From NCBI RefSeq assembly GCF_029910655.1, contig NZ_CP123897.1, forward strand, positions 5,073,547 through 5,137,546: a stretch of DNA of 64,000 nucleotides, read 5' to 3'. Positions within the stretch are counted from its first letter, which is position 1. Every line of letters begins with the position of its first letter. The notes beneath the pieces were generated by a model. It saw only the letters and a program-made list of their open reading frames with translations, made no database searches and was not told the DNA's origin. Made by a program: the position numbers and the translations under genes. Origin of the DNA: Methylomonas sp. UP202. GTDB lineage: Bacteria; Pseudomonadota; Gammaproteobacteria; Methylococcales; Methylomonadaceae. Positions 42,744 through 49,968 of the stretch are shown here, one piece after another.

Positions 42744-42948
42744 CCTGGGCCGGTAACCAGCCCCATCGCACGACAACCATCCCCCACGCGTGGTCGGAGT
42801 ACAAACCTAGGTTTGTACTCCAGTGCGCCAAACCGGTCAGCGCGTCTAAACCTCGGGGCTCGCTCCGCTCGCCCGGCCCGGCGATCCCGCCGGGCTACCC
42901 GCTGCCGGACCCGGCCGGATGGACCTCGGACCAAGCGGAACGCCTGGT
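42744..42948. repeat. Direct repeat, distal copy, with palindrome
   Basis: About 205 bases that match 42995-43200 with substitutions; copies are about 252 bases apart. Each carries a perfect 26-bp palindrome (half-site GGAGTACAAACCT; here 42796-42821), the 8-bp hairpin described below and a piece of FGE-gene 3' end. The arrangement suggests duplication of the 3' end of a target gene. Confidence 0.85.
42876..42895 (-). repeat. 8-bp stem, 4-base loop hairpin, copy 3
   Basis: GCCCGGCG-GGAT-CGCCGGGC on the minus strand, identical to the hairpins following both variable regions at 43128 and 44360. Confidence 0.85.
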
Positions 42949-42994: not shown

Positions 42995-43200
42995 CCTGGG
43001 CCGGTCGCCATCCCACAGCGCACGACAGCCATTCGCCACGCGTGGTCGGAGTACAAACCTAGGTTTGTACTCCAGTGCGCCAAACCGGTCAGCGCGTCTA
43101 AACCTCGGGGCTCGCTCCGCTCGCCCGGCCCGGCGATCCCGCCGGGCCACCCGCTGCCTGACCGGGCCCGATGGACCTCAGGCAAAGCCGAAAGCCCAGG
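42995..43200. repeat. Direct repeat, proximal copy, with palindrome
   Basis: Partner of 42744-42948. Its palindrome lies at 43048-43073, just beyond the stop codon of the FGE gene that ends at 43098. The GC-rich right half is the end of that gene. Confidence 0.85.
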
Positions 43201-43988
43201 CCGTCGCCGGCGAGGTCGGGCTGGATCGCGTGGCGGAGGGCCGAGCGAGTCCTCCAGGCGCCGTTGATCCAGGAGCCGCCGCGAATCACACGGGATTGGT
43301 CTTGGCCTGTCGGCCCGAGCGGATCGCTTTGCGCCTGCGCGCCGTATTCGCGCCATCCATCCTTACACCATTCGTAGACATTGCCATGCATTTCGTACAA
43401 GCCCCACGGGTTGGCCGGCAGGCTCTTGACCGGTACGGTCCGTTCCCGGTACTCGCCTGGCTCGCCGCCGGCATACGGATAATGGCCGGCGTAGTTGACT
43501 TGCGCCGGCGTGATGTTGGCGCCGAAACTAAACGGCGTCGTGGTGCCGGCCCTGCAGGCGTATTCCCATTCCGCTTCGCTGGGTAGTTCGACCTGGCAAC
43601 CGGGCAGTAAAACTTGTAGCTTTTCCAGAAACTGTTGCACGTCCAGCCAACTGACCTGTTCCACCGGCCGGTCGGGATCATCGTTGAACGCACTGGGGTT
43701 ATTGCCCATCACCGCCAGCCACAAGGCTTGGGTACAAGCCGTGTCTGCAAGCCAGAAACCCCGGCTAATCGTCACCGGATGTTGCGGGCCCTCGTCGCTA
43801 GACCGGTCCGGCTCGCCCTCCGGCGAGCCCATCCAGAAGCTGCCGGGTTCGATCCAACGCAGGATTTGCGTCAGCACCTCGGCCCCACCATCAACCGCGA
43901 TGGCCGCCCAAAGCCCATAGCGATCATCCCCCCAGGCATTGGCGAACGGCGGCGGAAACGGGTCGGGGAAGCGGGCGGGGTCTATCAT
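43098..43988 (-). CDS. FGE/SUMF1-fold protein, predicted DGR variable protein B
   Basis: 296 residues. After an N-terminal stretch (PPPFANAWGDDRYGLWAAIA) comes a complete FGE-sulfatase/SUMF1 domain: WIEPGSFWMGSPEGEPDRSS, DEGPQHPVTISRGFWLADTA, LPSEAEWEYACRAGTTTPFS, GLYEMHGNVYEWCKDGW and VIRGGSW, ending LGFRLCLRS. The two active-site cysteines of true formylglycine enzymes would lie just after GGS-Y/W and are absent, so it is a binding scaffold, not an enzyme (inference). Residues about 240-263 form the variable region described separately. The stop is followed by a palindrome. It is the last gene of the TIR-MoxR-vWA operon, 6 bases after the small ORF, and a recent paralogue of the FGE domain of the 926-residue protein. 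Confidence 0.88.
   Translation of the reverse strand: MIDPARFPDPFPPPFANAWGDDRYGLWAAIAVDGGAEVLTQILRWIEPGSFWMGSPEGEPDRSSDEGPQHPVTISRGFWLADTACTQALWLAVMGNNPSAFNDDPDRPVEQVSWLDVQQFLEKLQVLLPGCQVELPSEAEWEYACRAGTTTPFSFGANITPAQVNYAGHYPYAGGEPGEYRERTVPVKSLPANPWGLYEMHGNVYEWCKDGWREYGAQAQSDPLGPTGQDQSRVIRGGSWINGAWRTRSALRHAIQPDLAGDGLGFRLCLRSIGPGQAAGGPAGSPGRASGASPEV
43128..43147 (-). repeat. 8-bp stem, 4-base loop hairpin after variable region B
   Basis: GCCCGGCG-GGAT-CGCCGGGC, about 55 bases beyond the last variable site. Known DGR targets often carry a short-stem, 4-base-loop cruciform just downstream of the variable region; this matches in stem and loop length but not in the known loop sequence. Confidence 0.75.
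43201..43268 (-). other. Variable region B (DGR-like)
   Basis: Aligned without gaps to 44433-44500, it differs at 20 of 68 positions. Nineteen are first or second codon bases, one is a third base. All 14 changed codons change the residue (for example Tyr/Ile, Asp/Gly, Phe/Asp). At 14 sites one copy has A on the coding strand; the other six never conflict with an A template. Flanks are identical for 26 and 95 bases. Confidence 0.85.
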
Positions 43989-43994
43989 CGCAAA

Positions 43995-44246
43995 TTACCG
44001 GGCTGGAAAATTGGTCGGTGACCCATGCAAAACGGAAGAGGCTTCAGTCGCCGCTAAAGCGCCTCCTACGGGGGCCGGCGACCCATGCAACGCGGAAGAG
44101 GCGCCTGCTAAAGTCGGCGGCGGCCATTGAGTTTTGCCGGCCGGCAGCGGATAGGCAAAAACCGGGGGTGCATCGATCGCAGTTGCGCGGGGGTTAAACT
44201 CGTCTTGCGGCTGCAGGGCCGGTATCGCGAAAAAGTGCAGGGTCAT
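43995..44246 (-). CDS. Small ORF coupled to the vWA-FGE gene; possible truncated DGR accessory
   Basis: 83 residues. The ATG overlaps the stop of the vWA-FGE gene as ATGA, and the stop lies 6 bases before the next FGE gene, so position argues for a real, coupled gene. The N-terminus MTLHFFAIPALQPQDEFN resembles, from memory, the opening of small HRDC-type accessory proteins found between target gene and reverse transcriptase in some DGRs. The rest is Pro/Ala-rich and contains two near-identical SS-A/V-LHGSP segments made by a direct repeat in the DNA (about 44013-44042 and 44076-44105). It is probably a truncated relic that remains translated. Confidence 0.55.
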   Translation of the reverse strand: MTLHFFAIPALQPQDEFNPRATAIDAPPVFAYPLPAGKTQWPPPTLAGASSALHGSPAPVGGALAATEASSVLHGSPTNFPAR

Positions 44247-47023
44247 GATCGGCGTTTCGGTTTGGGGTCCGGTTTGAAAATCGCGGCCAGTTTGTCGGCA
44301 AGCCCGTCCCGCTCGGTGTCGGCCTCCCCTGGCGCGTCGGGGCTCGCTCCGCTCGCCCGGCCCGGCGATCCCGCCGGGCCACCCGCTGCCTGACCGGGCC
44401 CGATGGACCTCAGGCAAAGCCGAAAGCCCAGGATGAAGAGGGCGCTGACGGGCAGGTTCGCGTGGCGGTGGGCCGAGCGCGACCACCTGGCGTCGCTGTA
44501 CCAGGAGCCGCCGCGAATCACACGGGGCCGATCTTGGCCGCTCGGCCCAAGCGGGTCGATTTGCGCCGCCGCGCCGTATTCGCGACGCCCATCCTTGCAC
44601 CATTCGCCCACATTGCCATGCATTTCGTACAAGCCCCACGGATTGGCCGGCAGGGTTTTGACCGGCACGGTCCGATGCCGGTACTCGCCTGGCTCGCCGC
44701 CGGCATACGGCAATTCGCCCTGGTAGTTGACTTGCGCCGGGGCGATGTTGGCGCCGAAACTGAACGGAGTGGTGGTGCCGGCCCGGCAGGCGTATTCCCA
44801 TTCGGCCTCTGAGGGTAAATCGGCCTCATCACCGGGCAACAACATTTGCAGTTTTTCCAGAAATGCTTGCACATCATTCCAACTGACTCTTTCCACCGGC
44901 CGATTGGGTTCGTCATTGAACTTGCTAGGGTTATTGCCCATCACCGCCAGCCACAAGGCTTGAGTACAGGCGGTGTCGGCCAACCAGAATCCCCGACTTA
45001 TGGTAACTAGATGTTGTGGACCCTCATTTTCACGTCGTTCCGGTTCATCCTCCGGCGAGCCCACCAAAAAAGTCCCCGGCTCTATCCAGCGGAAGGATTG
45101 CGCTGCGGTGCAATTCTCCGTAGTCAGCAACAATTCGGCGAAGATTCCGCAACGATCGCGACCGAATCGCCCAGCCCAGGCGGGACGCTGTAAATGGCTC
45201 AAGTGATAGCGTTTTCCATCATGAATCAAATCGCAAGTTTGATCCGCTACCTGTTCGAGTATTGGTAAACGCTCGCCGTTTGGCTGGAATCGCCGGCGGC
45301 TAAATGGCGCATTGGTGGCAACCTCGACGGACTTAAATATCCGCGGCACATTCAACATCGACACGGCAAGGTTCGGTAACGGTTCGGTTTCCGGCCACAA
45401 CCACAAGCGGGAGCCGACCTGTACCAGCCGGTAAGATTGCCGCCCATCGTCTGAAACACCGACCCGGTCCAAATCCGAAGACAGAAGTCCCACCGGTATC
45501 TCGGTCAGACCGCTCGAAGCCCACAATTCGCTCAGCCACGGCGATTGCAGTTTCTGAAACACGGCATCCCCCCAGTTTCGGGACAACACGTCTTGGGCAA
45601 ACTCGGCCAGTTCTCTAGTATTGCCTTGCGCTCGCCGAGCCGCACGGAAAGCGGCTATCCAAGCTCTCGCGTCCACCACTCGCTCACGTCTGGAATTTGC
45701 CGCGATACCATTAACGTGACTTTCCCAAATCAAGGTTTCCAACACGCCGGTCGAACGGCCTTGCCAGTCGTGGATATTTAGAACGCAATCCAATGCGGCT
45801 TGCTGTTCTTCAACCGGCAAGCCACGAAAAAGAGCCCGATAGCCAGCTTGGTAATCAGCGGCCAAAGGCCGAGAAACCTCGCTGGCTCTGACAACCGGCC
45901 GATAACTCCAGACCAACCCTTCCAATCCGGGTTCGACGGCGGTATCGGGCCGTAAAACCCGGACGGCACGCAATAACGGCATCTCCACTCGCACACAAAA
46001 AGCCGTCCTGACAAGTAATTGTTCGCGCAGATGGCACATGCGCCTGTGCTCGGTCTCGCGTTGCTCGACCGTTCGCAAGCGGCCGGTTTGCGGTTGCAGA
46101 TTTCCCACCGAGTCTAAGCAATAAATTTTTATCAATCGCGCGGTCTCGGCCTCGACTTGGCGCGGAGAATGCGGTACCCAGGCGACGACCCGCCCGCCCG
46201 CCCGCCGAATGCTTCGTGCATATGCCTGCCATTGCCGAGCGGCGTGCGAAGACGCGCTTAACGCCCCCAAATCCGACAGAATCAGAACGTTACCGCCGCC
46301 AGCCGCTGGCTTGGCGGCTTGGCTAACGCTCCCCCCGGTTTTGGGCGGCCGACATCCCATCACCTGGCCAGGCACGCTATCAACGTTTAAAAGGGTCAGG
46401 CCATCGCTGCCGCGACCAGTCAACAATTGATTCAGTAAGGCTTGGTAGTCCGCGAAATACGGCGCCATCCGCTCGCTTCCGTCCCAAACGACGGTTAGAC
46501 ATCCACTCCAATAATAACGCCGCATGGCCGGTAAGCAACGCACGGGTTCCGCTCGGGCAATTCGTGAGGCCAGCGTACTTATATCCACGCCATGGGCGCG
46601 TTTCACCACCAACGACCGCTTGACCGCCGGCCAGAGTTTTTGCCGACGCACCAAAGGCATCACCGGCGGATAACCGGATTTAAGCGGCTGACAATCCTTC
46701 GGCGTCAGAGGTGCGTCGGCAATCGGTTGCGACACGGTTCGGCTATCGGATTCCAGAGCTTCGCAAGCGGTGACGGTCAACAGTTTGCAGGTCAAGGCAC
46801 TTTTGTGCTCGGACTGCAAAACGGTTTGTTGCTGTAACGGCGGTGGGCTGGCCTCGTCTTCCCGCGCGCGGATAAGAATGTCTGGTTGGCTCTGGTCTTC
46901 TTTGGGTTTTGGATAAAAACGCAGGCTCGCCGCCAACCGGTCTGCCATGTCTGAATCACTTTCCGCTAGGCTTAAAGCAAGCAGTAAGTCGGCGCTTGAC
47001 ACGTAGGTGGTCGGCCCTCGCAT
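44243..47023 (-). CDS. Degenerate vWA domain fused to FGE fold, predicted DGR variable protein A
   Basis: 926 residues. N-terminal part (1-160) is unassigned. Residues about 172-290 look like a von Willebrand A domain: CLTVVWDGSERM (a DxSxxM remnant of the metal site), then VLILSDLGAL and GRVVAWVP as later strands. A long middle region (300-640) is helical and unrecognised, with SAV_2336-like character (tentative). From about 645 an FGE/SUMF1 domain follows (FRWIEPGTFLVGSPEDEPER, LPSEAEWEYACRAGTTTPFS, GLYEMHGNVGEWCKD, VIRGGSWYSDARW, LGFRLCLRS), with the variable region at 841-864 and a low-complexity tail to KRRS. It lacks FGE catalytic cysteines. It begins 4 bases after the MoxR gene. MoxR and vWA proteins act in pairs, so this is the likely client or partner carrying a changeable binding face. 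Confidence 0.85.
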   Translation of the reverse strand: MRGPTTYVSSADLLLALSLAESDSDMADRLAASLRFYPKPKEDQSQPDILIRAREDEASPPPLQQQTVLQSEHKSALTCKLLTVTACEALESDSRTVSQPIADAPLTPKDCQPLKSGYPPVMPLVRRQKLWPAVKRSLVVKRAHGVDISTLASRIARAEPVRCLPAMRRYYWSGCLTVVWDGSERMAPYFADYQALLNQLLTGRGSDGLTLLNVDSVPGQVMGCRPPKTGGSVSQAAKPAAGGGNVLILSDLGALSASSHAARQWQAYARSIRRAGGRVVAWVPHSPRQVEAETARLIKIYCLDSVGNLQPQTGRLRTVEQRETEHRRMCHLREQLLVRTAFCVRVEMPLLRAVRVLRPDTAVEPGLEGLVWSYRPVVRASEVSRPLAADYQAGYRALFRGLPVEEQQAALDCVLNIHDWQGRSTGVLETLIWESHVNGIAANSRRERVVDARAWIAAFRAARRAQGNTRELAEFAQDVLSRNWGDAVFQKLQSPWLSELWASSGLTEIPVGLLSSDLDRVGVSDDGRQSYRLVQVGSRLWLWPETEPLPNLAVSMLNVPRIFKSVEVATNAPFSRRRFQPNGERLPILEQVADQTCDLIHDGKRYHLSHLQRPAWAGRFGRDRCGIFAELLLTTENCTAAQSFRWIEPGTFLVGSPEDEPERRENEGPQHLVTISRGFWLADTACTQALWLAVMGNNPSKFNDEPNRPVERVSWNDVQAFLEKLQMLLPGDEADLPSEAEWEYACRAGTTTPFSFGANIAPAQVNYQGELPYAGGEPGEYRHRTVPVKTLPANPWGLYEMHGNVGEWCKDGRREYGAAAQIDPLGPSGQDRPRVIRGGSWYSDARWSRSAHRHANLPVSALFILGFRLCLRSIGPGQAAGGPAGSPGRASGASPDAPGEADTERDGLADKLAAIFKPDPKPKRRS
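44360..44379 (-). repeat. 8-bp stem, 4-base loop hairpin after variable region A
   Basis: Same sequence and same distance from the variable region as the copy at 43128-43147; it lies inside the coding sequence (Gly/Pro-rich tail). Confidence 0.75.
44433..44500 (-). other. Variable region A (DGR-like)
   Basis: Counterpart of 43201-43268. It sits between GGSW and LGFRL at the C-terminal surface loops of the FGE fold, the place where known DGR variable proteins present their changeable residues. The 95 bases to its 3' side (44337-44431) are identical to those of copy B (43105-43199), and 26 bases to its 5' side are too, whereas the rest of the two domains differs in the ordinary way, including synonymous sites. 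Confidence 0.85.
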
Positions 47024-47027
47024 CGCA

Positions 47028-48056
47028 TCAATCCGTTAGCCCACTATCGAACGGCCGTTGCTGTTGAGTCCCTTTCACCCCCTCCACCGGGCGGTGTTTG
47101 ATAAAGGCATAGCCACTAAGCCTTTTTAACCAACGTTCTTGAAGAATCGCGTCGTCCGGCGCCAGTTGAACCAAGGCCGATAGCAAATCGATGAACTCGG
47201 CCAATCCGGGGGGCGGTAACGCGGCTTGTTCGGCGTTGTTGCGGTCTTCCACCAAACGTTTGGCCGCCAACCGAATAATTTCAACGGGAACGCCAGTCCG
47301 TCCGGCATCGCGACCCTCGGCAAAATGCGCTAATCCGCGCTTTGCCAACCATTCCTCGTATCCAAGCTCGGGATCGTGGGACAGATTCAACACTATGCAG
47401 CGCCGGATAAAGGCCGCCGGCAGTTCGCGTTCTTCATTGGTTGTTATCAAGATCAAGGGCAATTGTCGCGACGGCGCGCCAAAGCGCAAATTCAACGCCG
47501 GAATTTCAAACGCGCGTTGACCCAACACGTCGAGCAAACTATTCGGCAAGTCGCTATCAGCCTTATCGATTTCATCCAATAACACCACATGTCCCTCGGG
47601 TTCTGTTTGCGGATCGTCACCGAGCTTTGGCCGGCAACTGCCATACTCGCAGGCTAGTTGCCAATCGTAAGCCTTCCATAACGGCCCCGGCTCCCAATAG
47701 TTATGTTCGATCAAATGGGGTTCGCGCGCCTGGGCATCCGCCAGCCGCTTAACGGCATCGAAGCGATACAGCAAATCCGACGCCTCGAATCGCGGATGTA
47801 TCGTTGTGGCGTGCAGAACCCACCCCAGTTGCTGGGCCACCGCCCGAGCCAACTGGGTTTTTCCGGTGCCGGGTTCTCCGCGGACCAACAGAGGACGGCG
47901 GGCACTGATCGCCAACGTCAGAGCGTCGATTTCCGCTTGAGACCATTGGTGGACAGTAGCATCCAGGTGATTTGTGGCGGGTATGCGTTGCACGAAGCCG
48001 TCTGTCAGCTGGCGTAGGGTCTCTATGGGTGAAAGCTTGTTTTTACAGTCGATCAT
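47028..48056 (-). CDS. MoxR-family AAA+ ATPase
   Basis: 342 residues. Walker A RGEPGTGKTQLAR (about 59-71), Walker B GHVVLLDEIDKAD (156-168), sensor 1 LILITTNEERELP, and an arginine finger region AAFIRRCIVLNL; the DSDLPNSLLDVLGQRAFEIP segment is typical of MoxR/AAA_5. MoxR proteins act as chaperones for vWA-domain partners; here the downstream gene, 4 bases on, encodes a vWA-like protein. It follows the TIR gene by 22 bases. Predicted NTP-driven switch of the operon. Confidence 0.92.
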   Translation of the reverse strand: MIDCKNKLSPIETLRQLTDGFVQRIPATNHLDATVHQWSQAEIDALTLAISARRPLLVRGEPGTGKTQLARAVAQQLGWVLHATTIHPRFEASDLLYRFDAVKRLADAQAREPHLIEHNYWEPGPLWKAYDWQLACEYGSCRPKLGDDPQTEPEGHVVLLDEIDKADSDLPNSLLDVLGQRAFEIPALNLRFGAPSRQLPLILITTNEERELPAAFIRRCIVLNLSHDPELGYEEWLAKRGLAHFAEGRDAGRTGVPVEIIRLAAKRLVEDRNNAEQAALPPPGLAEFIDLLSALVQLAPDDAILQERWLKRLSGYAFIKHRPVEGVKGTQQQRPFDSGLTD

Positions 48057-48078: not shown

Positions 48079-49968
48079 TCATTGACACAGGTTTGTAATT
48101 TCCAGCGCCACGTCGGCTAATTGCTGGTCGCGATCGAACTGGACATCCGCTAACGGCTGAGCTTCCGACGGACGCATTTGCATCGCGCTTAGCCAAGGTA
48201 CCAGTTGCCAAGTGCAAGCTCGTACCAACAGAGGCACGATACGCATCCCCTGACTTTGATGTCTATTCAACAGCGTCGGCACTTCGACGGACGTAATAAA
48301 TTTAGATCCTAAGAACGCCGGAGAGATCAAAATAACCGCCACCTTACAGCTTTGTAACTGCCGGTCGATTTCGGCATACCAGTCCTGCCCCGCGCCAATG
48401 CCGCGATCATCCCAAATATCGAGCAAACCCTGGTTTTCCGCGACTTTTAGATGTTCAACCAAATACTCGCGAAACTTATCATCCTTGTGGGCGTAGCTGA
48501 TAAACACTTTATTGCGCGTAACCATCGATTCTCCCGTAGTAGGTACTGTCACAAAAGGAATGAGTATGTTCTTGAAATGATTTGTCAGGGAACTTTGAAT
48601 CCGCAACCATTCGTCAACCAGTTCATCCACATTGGAATGATCATTCCCACCGTATAAAAACATTTCAATTCCCCAACGCTGTTTTACACGCTTGAACAAG
48701 TTACTATCCACGCCTTTGAGCGGAACCGCTCCTGGCAAACCAACCATCAAACTCGCCCCAATTGCGTCTTCGTACATTTTTAATCCGGCTTTGAGGTCAT
48801 CGTCATGCGGTGAATCGATTCCTACCAAACTACCAACTGTTAATTCGCGTTGTAATCGCGCATAAATTTCGTCACCTATGGTTTGCTCAAAGGTTTTGAC
48901 GCCAAACTGGGTCTCGGCGTGATCACAAATCAAGTTCGCCGCCTTGATGCCACCATCCTGATCGACTCGTAACTTTATGCCTAAATCAAACCAAGCCGCC
49001 GCCACTATGGTGGCGGTTAGTTCTTCGGTCATAGCGATGCTCGGCATGCCATTGAGCCAATGAACGCGGCCGATTTGCTTCTGGGCAATCCAACGCGCAC
49101 CGGCCAACAAACATATATGCGCTACCAAATCGAATACCCGATCGACACCGGACTCGGCCAAGGGAATATTGGCCCGTTTGATGGCGTTCGCGATTTCCCA
49201 CAACAAGAGGTTTGGATCGGCATCGCAACAATATTGATATATTTCGGTTACGCCGCCTGAAGGATTACTTTTAAGTAAAACCTGTAAAATCGGATGCGAA
49301 TGCAAAGCCGGTAAACTGGCAACTTCTCTCACCAAGTTCTCCAACTGGCGGTATAAACGCGACAACGGCACCGGATTGGAGAATTCAAATTCCAGAGCAT
49401 TCACAGGCTCCATGGTTAGCACGTTATTTCCGTCTGTATCAGATAATTCCGAATCTATGTGCCCGATAAGTTCTTTTCCAATGTTTTGCTTCGCTTCGGA
49501 TCGGATTTTCAGATAATAATCCTTGGACAAGCCTTCGTTAAGTGCCAAACGCTGCAGTATCAACGTCGCGAACTGGTCCGGCGTTTTTGGATCCAGTTCG
49601 ATGAAACCCGCCGCATCGCTCAACCCGTCAGCATCGGCATAATCAAATCGACTAGGCATCACGCGGTGCCCGTCGGCTTTGGTCAGCAGACTGTAGATAT
49701 GCACCCACTCCCAGCCGGTCCAGCGTTTCTGGTCGTAGTTTTGACACAGAACCGGCACGATCAATTCGGACTGTTCGCCGTAGAGCTTCGGCAAATAAAT
49801 ACCCAAATTAAAGCGGGCAAATTCCGCCTCGTGGTATTTGTCGTACAGTATTTTCTCTTTGCCAAATATTTCCGCTAATAGCTGCGCGGTCTGTTCAACG
49901 AAAGGTCGCTTTTCGCCGGCGAACGAAAAGGCGATGCGAAAACGTTTGGGAGGGGTGTCGGTGACCAT
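48079..49968 (-). CDS. Protein with TIR-like domains at both ends
   Basis: 629 residues. The N-terminus (about 9-150) has a TIR/SEFIR-type pattern: FRIAFSFAGEKRPFVEQTAQ, ILYDKYHEAEF, LIVPVLCQNY and RWTGWEW. The middle (150-480) is unrecognised. The C-terminus from about 487 is a clear TIR domain: KVFISYAHKDDKFREYLVEH, LDIWDDRGIGAG, VAVILISPAFLGSKFITSVE with the candidate catalytic Glu near 562, then IVPLLVRAC. TIR domains cleave NAD or act as assembly modules in bacterial immunity. The base composition is visibly more A/T-rich than its neighbours, which suggests transfer. First gene of the island operon; a short spacing to MoxR supports co-expression. Confidence 0.87.
   Translation of the reverse strand: MVTDTPPKRFRIAFSFAGEKRPFVEQTAQLLAEIFGKEKILYDKYHEAEFARFNLGIYLPKLYGEQSELIVPVLCQNYDQKRWTGWEWVHIYSLLTKADGHRVMPSRFDYADADGLSDAAGFIELDPKTPDQFATLILQRLALNEGLSKDYYLKIRSEAKQNIGKELIGHIDSELSDTDGNNVLTMEPVNALEFEFSNPVPLSRLYRQLENLVREVASLPALHSHPILQVLLKSNPSGGVTEIYQYCCDADPNLLLWEIANAIKRANIPLAESGVDRVFDLVAHICLLAGARWIAQKQIGRVHWLNGMPSIAMTEELTATIVAAAWFDLGIKLRVDQDGGIKAANLICDHAETQFGVKTFEQTIGDEIYARLQRELTVGSLVGIDSPHDDDLKAGLKMYEDAIGASLMVGLPGAVPLKGVDSNLFKRVKQRWGIEMFLYGGNDHSNVDELVDEWLRIQSSLTNHFKNILIPFVTVPTTGESMVTRNKVFISYAHKDDKFREYLVEHLKVAENQGLLDIWDDRGIGAGQDWYAEIDRQLQSCKVAVILISPAFLGSKFITSVEVPTLLNRHQSQGMRIVPLLVRACTWQLVPWLSAMQMRPSEAQPLADVQFDRDQQLADVALEITNLCQ

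What the first reader, a model, noticed from the sequence alone, without database searches (positions are those of the whole stretch)
43201..44500. Two FGE-fold genes carry DGR-like variable regions
Seen directly: 43201-43268 and 44433-44500 align without gaps and differ at 20 of 68 positions; 19 are codon positions 1 or 2, all 14 affected codons change the amino acid, and there is only one third-base change. At 14 sites one copy has A on the coding strand and the other six are compatible with an A in a shared template. Many codons end in C, as AAC-derived codons would. Flanks are identical over 26 and 95 bases, although the rest of the two domains differs normally. Known: diversity-generating retroelements copy a template RNA with adenine-specific errors into the 3' end of C-type-lectin/FGE-fold genes, at this same GGSW...GFRL position. 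Inference: both genes are targets of one DGR whose reverse transcriptase lies elsewhere.
Basis: partly seen in the sequence, partly recalled or inferred. Interest (0 to 1): 0.95.

Follow-up and report, generated by a model that had tools for sequence, protein, structure and literature searches.

The report
Hypermutated sensor genes, mutator excised
In a methane-eating Methylomonas bacterium, two neighbouring genes predicted to encode recognition proteins carry matching scrambled patches that were likely written by a targeted-mutation retroelement; no such reverse transcriptase or template was found in the genome, and a stub resembling the element's helper gene sits between the two genes.

Summary
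In detail: the two patches differ at 20 of 68 sites, 19 at codon positions 1 or 2, and all 14 affected codons change residue. A DGR origin is strongly supported. Methylomonas lenta (G009) keeps a complete cassette in the same gene order. Its template has A at 21 of the 24 sites that vary among the window's two patches and one from a second strain, against 2 of 68 other sites. Between the genes lies an 83-aa ORF that begins like the accessory gene and has no HRDC domain; the cassette was likely excised. M. koyamae R-45383 has the same scar, yet its patch differs at 18 sites between 190 and 147 identical bases. Three more family loci lack the cassette, with other junctions. DGR relics are already described in print.

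The parts
43201..43268 (-). Variable region VR1 of the short target gene
   Evidence: 20 of 68 differences to VR2, 19 at codon positions 1 or 2; variable sites are A in relatives' templates
44433..44500 (-). Variable region VR2 of the long target gene
   Evidence: 18 differences to the same patch of strain G005 inside 190 and 147 identical bases, 17 of the 18 on G009-template A
43098..43988 (-). Short target gene, 296 aa, FGE-fold domain only
   Evidence: PF03781, 152 bits; best solved relative TvpA 2y3c, E 3.9e-24
44243..47023 (-). Long target gene, 926 aa: N-terminal extension without a Pfam match, C-terminal FGE-fold domain
   Evidence: PF03781, 134 bits at residues 646-869
43177..43200 (-). 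24 bases after VR1 at the place where template and target are shared in M. lenta (IMH-like stretch)
   Evidence: Position taken by analogy with L045, where VR and template stop matching after ...GCCTGAG; identical to the stretch after VR2
44409..44432 (-). 24 bases after VR2, IMH-like stretch
   Evidence: As for 43177-43200
43127..43148 (-). Hairpin after VR1: 9-bp stem, loop GGAT
   Evidence: 28 bases after the IMH-like stretch
44359..44380 (-). Hairpin after VR2: 9-bp stem, loop GGAT
43995..44246 (-). 83-aa ORF in the gap: about the first 18 codons resemble the HRDC accessory gene, the rest does not; likely scar of the lost accessory-RT-template cassette
   Evidence: tblastn E 1.9e-7 (G104 accessory) and 3.4e-6 (G009 accessory) against the small set of gaps; no Pfam match at E <= 0.01; dN/dS 1.28 between two strains
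47028..48056 (-). MoxR-type AAA ATPase gene, 342 aa, next to the long target
   Evidence: PF07728 57 bits; PF20030 bpMoxR 36.8 bits, cut-off 27
48079..49968 (-). TIR-domain gene, 629 aa
   Evidence: PF13676 81 bits; PADLOC ThsB-type TIR E 1.2e-25
42853..42944 (-). Third copy of the stretch downstream of a VR, without a target gene body; likely remnant of a further target
   Evidence: 90% identity to the VR1 downstream stretch; aligns to the end of a VR of L045

Best explanation
The genes at 43098-43988 and 44243-47023 carry 68-bp patches that were likely written by adenine-mutating retrohoming from one diversity-generating retroelement (DGR), whose reverse transcriptase and template were not found anywhere in this genome and were likely excised from between the two genes. 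In the known DGR cycle, an RNA of the template is copied with errors at A and the cDNA replaces the C-terminal patch of each target, guided by the shared 3' stretch and the hairpin after it. Shown here: the patch pattern; relatives' templates with A at those sites; an intact cassette of M. lenta in the same gene order; the accessory-gene stub in the gap; no DGR-type reverse transcriptase and no template in this genome. Inferred: that the cassette once stood in this gap and was deleted, that the patches are now fixed in this strain, and that the proteins are recognition parts of a MoxR/TIR conflict module.
For: Patch pattern. Whole-genome searches: one RT, group II intron type (TIGR04416, 422 bits, cut-off 300), no template. 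The same kind of query finds DGR-type RTs in G005 and G009 (E 3.7e-41, 1.5e-34), so the method can see them. M. lenta order MoxR, long target, HRDC accessory, RT, template, short target. G009 template: A at 21 of 24 variable and 2 of 68 invariant sites, Fisher p 1.6e-15; the other six templates 19 to 23 of 24. Six complete cassettes: 162 of 163 template/target differences on A. Accessory stub in the gap, same in M. koyamae R-45383 and in a third sequence from a source labelled gem. Codon entropy. Top solved relative is TvpA.
Against: No template of this species has been seen; each patch still has 7 or 8 non-A differences to the nearest template, M. lenta's. The right edge of the scar does not align to relatives' template flank. 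VR2 differs between two strains that share the scar, so a simple order 'deleted first, frozen since' does not fit without recombination or a later spread of the deletion. The hairpin loop is GGAT, not GRNA, the 101-nt stretches fold only moderately better than shuffles (z -2.30 and -1.55), and many family VRs lack such a hairpin in my scan.
Confidence: 0.88

Rival explanations
1. The patches are still diversified in trans by a reverse transcriptase and template elsewhere in this genome, or by one carried on a plasmid or phage that comes and goes.
For: VR2 differs at A-type sites between two strains that both lack the cassette at this locus. Strain G005 does hold another DGR on contig C204. Trans action is reported for Thiohalocapsa (PMC10907252, Results part 2).
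Against: No DGR-type RT and no template in this genome. The C204 template differs from the G005 patch at 20 non-A sites. In plasmids, phages and viral contigs the RTs listed reach at most about 36% identity (capped lists).
Confidence: 0.05
2. Mixed origin: the patches were made by a DGR, but since its loss the differences between strains come from recombination that swaps ready-made patches among alleles and related targets.
For: Identity between the two strains is a mosaic: 0 mismatches over about 1,060 bases, then 79 in 480 bases of the FGE domain, then 0 in 120, then the patch. VR1 and VR2 share identical flanks.
Against: VR2 differs inside 190 and 147 identical bases, so a swapped tract would have to be very short or come from a donor identical in the flanks.
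Confidence: 0.35
3. No DGR was involved: ordinary mutation under diversifying selection with gene conversion of the flanks.
For: Other positions of the domain are variable too: 14 of the 25 most variable positions are not predicted DGR codons.
Against: Variable sites coincide with template A in seven templates from other genomes. Among the window's VR1, VR2 and the G005 VR2, the 68 other positions of the 92-base core are identical. The accessory-gene stub lies in the gap.
Confidence: 0.02

Closest known systems
Complete DGR of Methylomonas lenta (G009:C101, locus L045)
   Same: Same gene order around the gap; paired long and short FGE-fold targets; MoxR gene; same patch position, IMH-like stretch and hairpin after the VRs
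   Different: Has accessory gene, reverse transcriptase and template; the window has a stub instead. The N-terminal part of the long target is only 27% identical
Clade 5A DGRs with MoxR ATPase, described by Dore et al. 2024 (PMC10907252; MoxR section read)
   Different: Those loci were found by their RT; the window has none. RT phylogeny was not tested here
TvpA and RT-less DGR relics of Treponema denticola (PMC4891356, passages; PDB 2y3c)
   Same: FGE/C-type-lectin target with a C-terminal variable region, HRDC accessory gene, targets left behind in isolates without RT and template
   Different: Another phylum; no MoxR/TIR context was compared; the window pair keeps two targets side by side with a stub between them
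BPP-1 phage DGR (PMC3240598, passages; record fetched)
   Same: RT type of the relatives; GC-rich hairpin with 4-nt loop downstream of the VR
   Different: Phage receptor target, loop consensus GRNA, complete cassette

Membership tests
Active diversity-generating retroelement | DGR-type reverse transcriptase in the genome | tested here: not met
   One RT only, group II intron type
Active diversity-generating retroelement | Template repeat in the genome | tested here: not met
   DNA search finds VR1, VR2 and a tail copy; pattern with 3 mismatches finds VR1 and VR2 only
Active diversity-generating retroelement | Accessory protein (HRDC or Avd) present | tested here: not met
   At this locus only a stub without HRDC; the rest of the genome was not searched for it
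DGR target gene | Sites that vary among targets are adenines of the template | tested here: met
   On relatives' templates only: 21 of 24 (G009), 24 of 24 in at least one of seven
DGR target gene | C-type-lectin/FGE fold with the variable region at its C-terminal end | tested here: met
   PF03781; TvpA alignment through the same stretch; by sequence, no structure was predicted
DGR target gene | IMH stretch and hairpin downstream of the VR | tested here: inconclusive
   9-bp stem, 4-nt loop GGAT, 28 bases after the IMH-like stretch; published loop consensus is GRNA; not present in all family cassettes
Clade 5A MoxR-associated DGR module | MoxR gene next to a long target and a short CLec-only target, TIR nearby | tested here: met
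Clade 5A MoxR-associated DGR module | Reverse transcriptase belongs to clade 5A | not tested
   No RT in the window's genome; no tree was built for the relatives' RTs
Clade 5A MoxR-associated DGR module | Antigen sensing or defence function | not testable with these tools
   Proposed by Dore et al. and by them called untested

The most novel reading that the evidence does not exclude
Excision of the mutator is a recurrent step in the life of these sensors: a lineage diversifies a long/short sensor pair, then loses accessory gene, reverse transcriptase and template by short-repeat deletion and keeps the pair as fixed, inherited receptors. Short homology between the accessory gene and the template's 3' end makes the cut easy, and recombination between strains then shuffles the frozen patches.
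Probability: 0.12. Interest if true: 0.7.

Novelty: new member of a known kind. Interest (0 to 1): 0.46.

Why it matters
It shows how a DGR can be recognised after its machinery is gone: paired targets, A-type patches and an accessory-gene stub. Several loci of one bacterial family are in this state with different junctions, which makes it testable whether losing the mutator is decay or a way to fix a good receptor. It also places DGR-made recognition proteins in Methylomonas, a free-living methane oxidiser in which they could be studied.

Tried and rejected
A remote reverse transcriptase in this genome: rejected. The 19 kb around the only RT (L005) were scanned for a template; the best ungapped matches kept 17 or 18 unexplained mismatches of 68. 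A plasmid copy of the patch: no match. A phage, plasmid or viral source: RTs listed there reach at most about 36% identity (the lists show 20 of 3084 plasmid records, 20 of 124 phage records and 80 of 170 viral loci). The C204 DGR of G005 as a trans source: 20 non-A mismatches to the G005 patch. A selected small protein in the scar: 20 nonsynonymous and 6 synonymous changes, dN/dS 1.28, no sign of constraint. A template remnant in the scar: only 10 bases (44153-44162) are shared with the M. lenta template end, too short to count. A flank of the C204 locus was sought in this genome without a match, which shows little. No structure was predicted and no RT tree was built.

Limits. Loci with and without RT were collected by different queries (RT protein, or VR DNA), and I fetched only part of the hits, so 5 with RT against 4 without is not a rate. 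Most relatives are draft genomes; G094 is 74% complete and G108 has 7% contamination; in G094, G107 and G108 the cassette is missing between the targets, not proven missing from the genome (G108 and G094 hold other RT hits). Templates were named by their place beside an RT and their A-rich core. The entropy test used 108 of the 120 listed relatives (those under 340 aa) with two window sequences, and the 120 are the best of 3736 hits.
Full report
Observation. The genes run on the minus strand: a 296-aa protein (43098-43988) and a 926-aa protein (44243-47023), both with an FGE-sulfatase domain. The patches at 43201-43268 and 44433-44500 differ at 20 of 68 positions; 19 differences are at codon positions 1 or 2, all 14 affected codons change residue, and at 14 sites one copy has A. 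Identical flanks are 26 and 96 bases. The aligned 136 bases upstream hold 18 differences, 9 at third positions.

Is there a DGR in this genome? The genome is held as 5.68 Mb in 2 contigs, listed as 100% complete. The RVT_1 profile finds one RT; the RTs of phage BPP-1 and of M. lenta find the same place (E 1.1e-11; E 2.3e-22, 31% identity). It is a group II intron type: TIGR04416 at 422 bits, cut-off 300, with GVPQGGPLSP where the RTs of G009, G104, G005 and BPP-1 have G(L/I)PIGSLTSQ (that this motif marks DGR RTs is recalled). A DNA search with the VR1 region finds VR1, VR2 and a tail copy only. A pattern with N at the variable sites and up to 3 mismatches finds VR1 and VR2 only in this genome.

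Relatives. Of 37 genomes of the genus, 23 match the BPP-1 RT at E <= 0.001, many of them at places with group II-like scores; the two best are G005 (same species, 3.7e-41) and G009 (1.5e-34). G005 is Methylomonas koyamae R-45383: the contig of 4,387 bases is named. G009 is Methylomonas lenta: the 80,766-base contig carries a protein so named. In G009 the order is a neighbour with the same kind of N-terminal stretch as the window's TIR gene, MoxR, long target (1005 aa), HRDC accessory protein (170 aa), RT (350 aa), template, short target. Of 237 family genomes, 15 have such an RT at E <= 1e-30.

The adenine rule. Seven templates were identified beside RTs; the core compared is 92 bases. In the six cassettes that also hold targets, 11 VRs differ from their own template at 163 sites, 162 of them template A. 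The window's VR1, VR2 and the G005 VR2 vary at 24 sites. The G009 template has A at 21 of these and at 2 of the 68 invariant sites (Fisher p 1.6e-15); the other six templates have A at 19 to 23 of the 24 and at 3 to 9 of the 68. All 24 sites are A in at least one template, against 13 of 68 invariant sites. Against this: the patches also have 7 or 8 non-A differences to the G009 template and more to the others, as expected if the species had its own template, which has not been seen.

Protein level. In an alignment of 110 sequences the 15 touched codons average 3.0 bits of entropy against 1.0 for the other residues 61-275; 11 of the 15 are among the 25 most variable positions and 0 of 20000 random draws reached their mean. 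The best solved relative is TvpA of Treponema denticola (2y3c, E 3.9e-24), aligned through the same C-terminal stretch.

The gap. The window has 254 bases between the two genes; M. lenta has about 1.86 kb. The window's gap holds an 83-aa ORF (43995-44246) whose first ~18 codons match the accessory gene (E 1.9e-7 and 3.4e-6 in a search of five short gaps); it has no Pfam match, while two intact accessory proteins match HRDC. Its right edge does not align to the relatives' template flank. M. koyamae R-45383 has an ORF of the same length (80% identical), and so has a protein from a source labelled gem (88%). Window against R-45383 the ORF has 20 nonsynonymous and 6 synonymous changes, dN/dS 1.28, as expected of a relic.

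Strain comparison. Window against R-45383: 0 mismatches over about 1,060 bases of the long target, 79 in the next 480 (FGE domain), 0 in 120, then VR2 with 18, then near identity for 180 bases, then 29 mismatches in 240 bases of the gap. VR2 lies between identical runs of 190 and 147 bases. 17 of its 18 differences are on G009-template A; the remaining site is A in four other templates. So VR2 was likely rewritten not long ago, although both strains lack the cassette here. Either rewriting went on after the split and the deletion spread later, or ready patches are exchanged by recombination; this is unresolved. The short target of R-45383 is another lineage (47 differences to its closest template, 25 of them non-A).

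Other losses. Three further loci have two targets and no RT between them. In G107 the join lies at TTTTGCCTGA, which in the intact relative G104 occurs in the accessory gene and at the template's 3' end, 1597 bases apart. In G094 the long target runs straight into the start of the short one. In G108 the accessory gene stops at about codon 114-124 and unrelated sequence follows. Among the loci I fetched, those with two targets that keep RT and template are G009, G104:C282, G104:C151, G100:C52 and G005:C204. The junctions differ, which suggests separate losses; the sampling does not allow a rate.

Hairpin. Both VRs are followed by a hairpin with a 9-bp stem and loop GGAT, 28 bases after the IMH-like stretch. 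M. lenta has one after its two VRs and none after its template. Published elements have 7-10 bp GC-rich stems with loop GRNA, 4-34 bases after the VR (PMC3240598, passages). The loop here differs in its last base. In my scan (stem of at least 7, loop 3-5, 130 bases) no hairpin was found after many other family VRs, for example those of G226, G100, G104:C151, G107 and G108, and one of seven templates had one. The 101-nt stretches fold only moderately better than shuffles. It is supporting evidence only.

Setting. Next to the targets lie a MoxR-type ATPase and a TIR protein (PADLOC gives a ThsB-type TIR at 1.2e-25 and no match for the two targets at E <= 0.01). Dore et al. [quoted passage not shown] Kaur et al. 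link MoxR conflict systems to FGE-domain DGR targets (PMC7159879, passages). The role in the window is a prediction from these.

Novelty. RT-less DGR relics are in print for Treponema denticola (PMC4891356, passages) and degenerate loci for Thiohalocapsa (PMC10907252). Searches of open-access PMC for DGR with Methylomonas gave 0 papers, and with methanotroph 6 papers, none on Methylomonas by title and start of abstract; a search on DGR-loss terms is. I rate it a new member of a known kind; the repeated loss is the most interesting part.

Noticed in passing
window 42796-42821 and 43048-43073: Two copies of a perfect 26-base palindrome, GGAGTACAAACCTAGGTTTGTACTCC, inside a 184-base tandem-like duplication (42761-42944, 43013-43196). 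With up to 2 mismatches it occurs at 16 places in this genome, 12 in G005, 15 in G009, 0 in G016 and G001; likely a small dispersed element.
   Followed up: partly
window 42853-42944: A third copy of the VR downstream stretch with hairpin but no target gene body, likely the end of a lost third target.
   Followed up: partly
L102 4244-4333, G104:C183:11298-11387, G105:C225:3842-3931: Similar stand-alone copies of the VR downstream stretch in other genera. In L102 and L106 my scan found no VR core beside them; the G104 contig was not fetched.
   Followed up: no
L043 9917-15649 (G005:C204): M. koyamae R-45383 has a second, complete DGR of another lineage with two FGE targets, HRDC gene, RT and template; no such RT was found in the window's genome.
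   Followed up: partly
L045 10130-11845: The short target of M. lenta reads on in frame into a second, unrelated-looking C-terminal part (571 aa in all) that resembles a pseudouridine synthase by eye (recalled, not tested).
   Followed up: no
window 44641-45120: Within one species the FGE domain of the long target differs at 79 of 480 bases while the preceding 1,060 bases are identical, a sign of recombination between alleles or targets.
   Followed up: partly
L101 7035-7763 (G107): One VR of the RT-less G107 pair has a 3-base deletion inside the patch.
   Followed up: no
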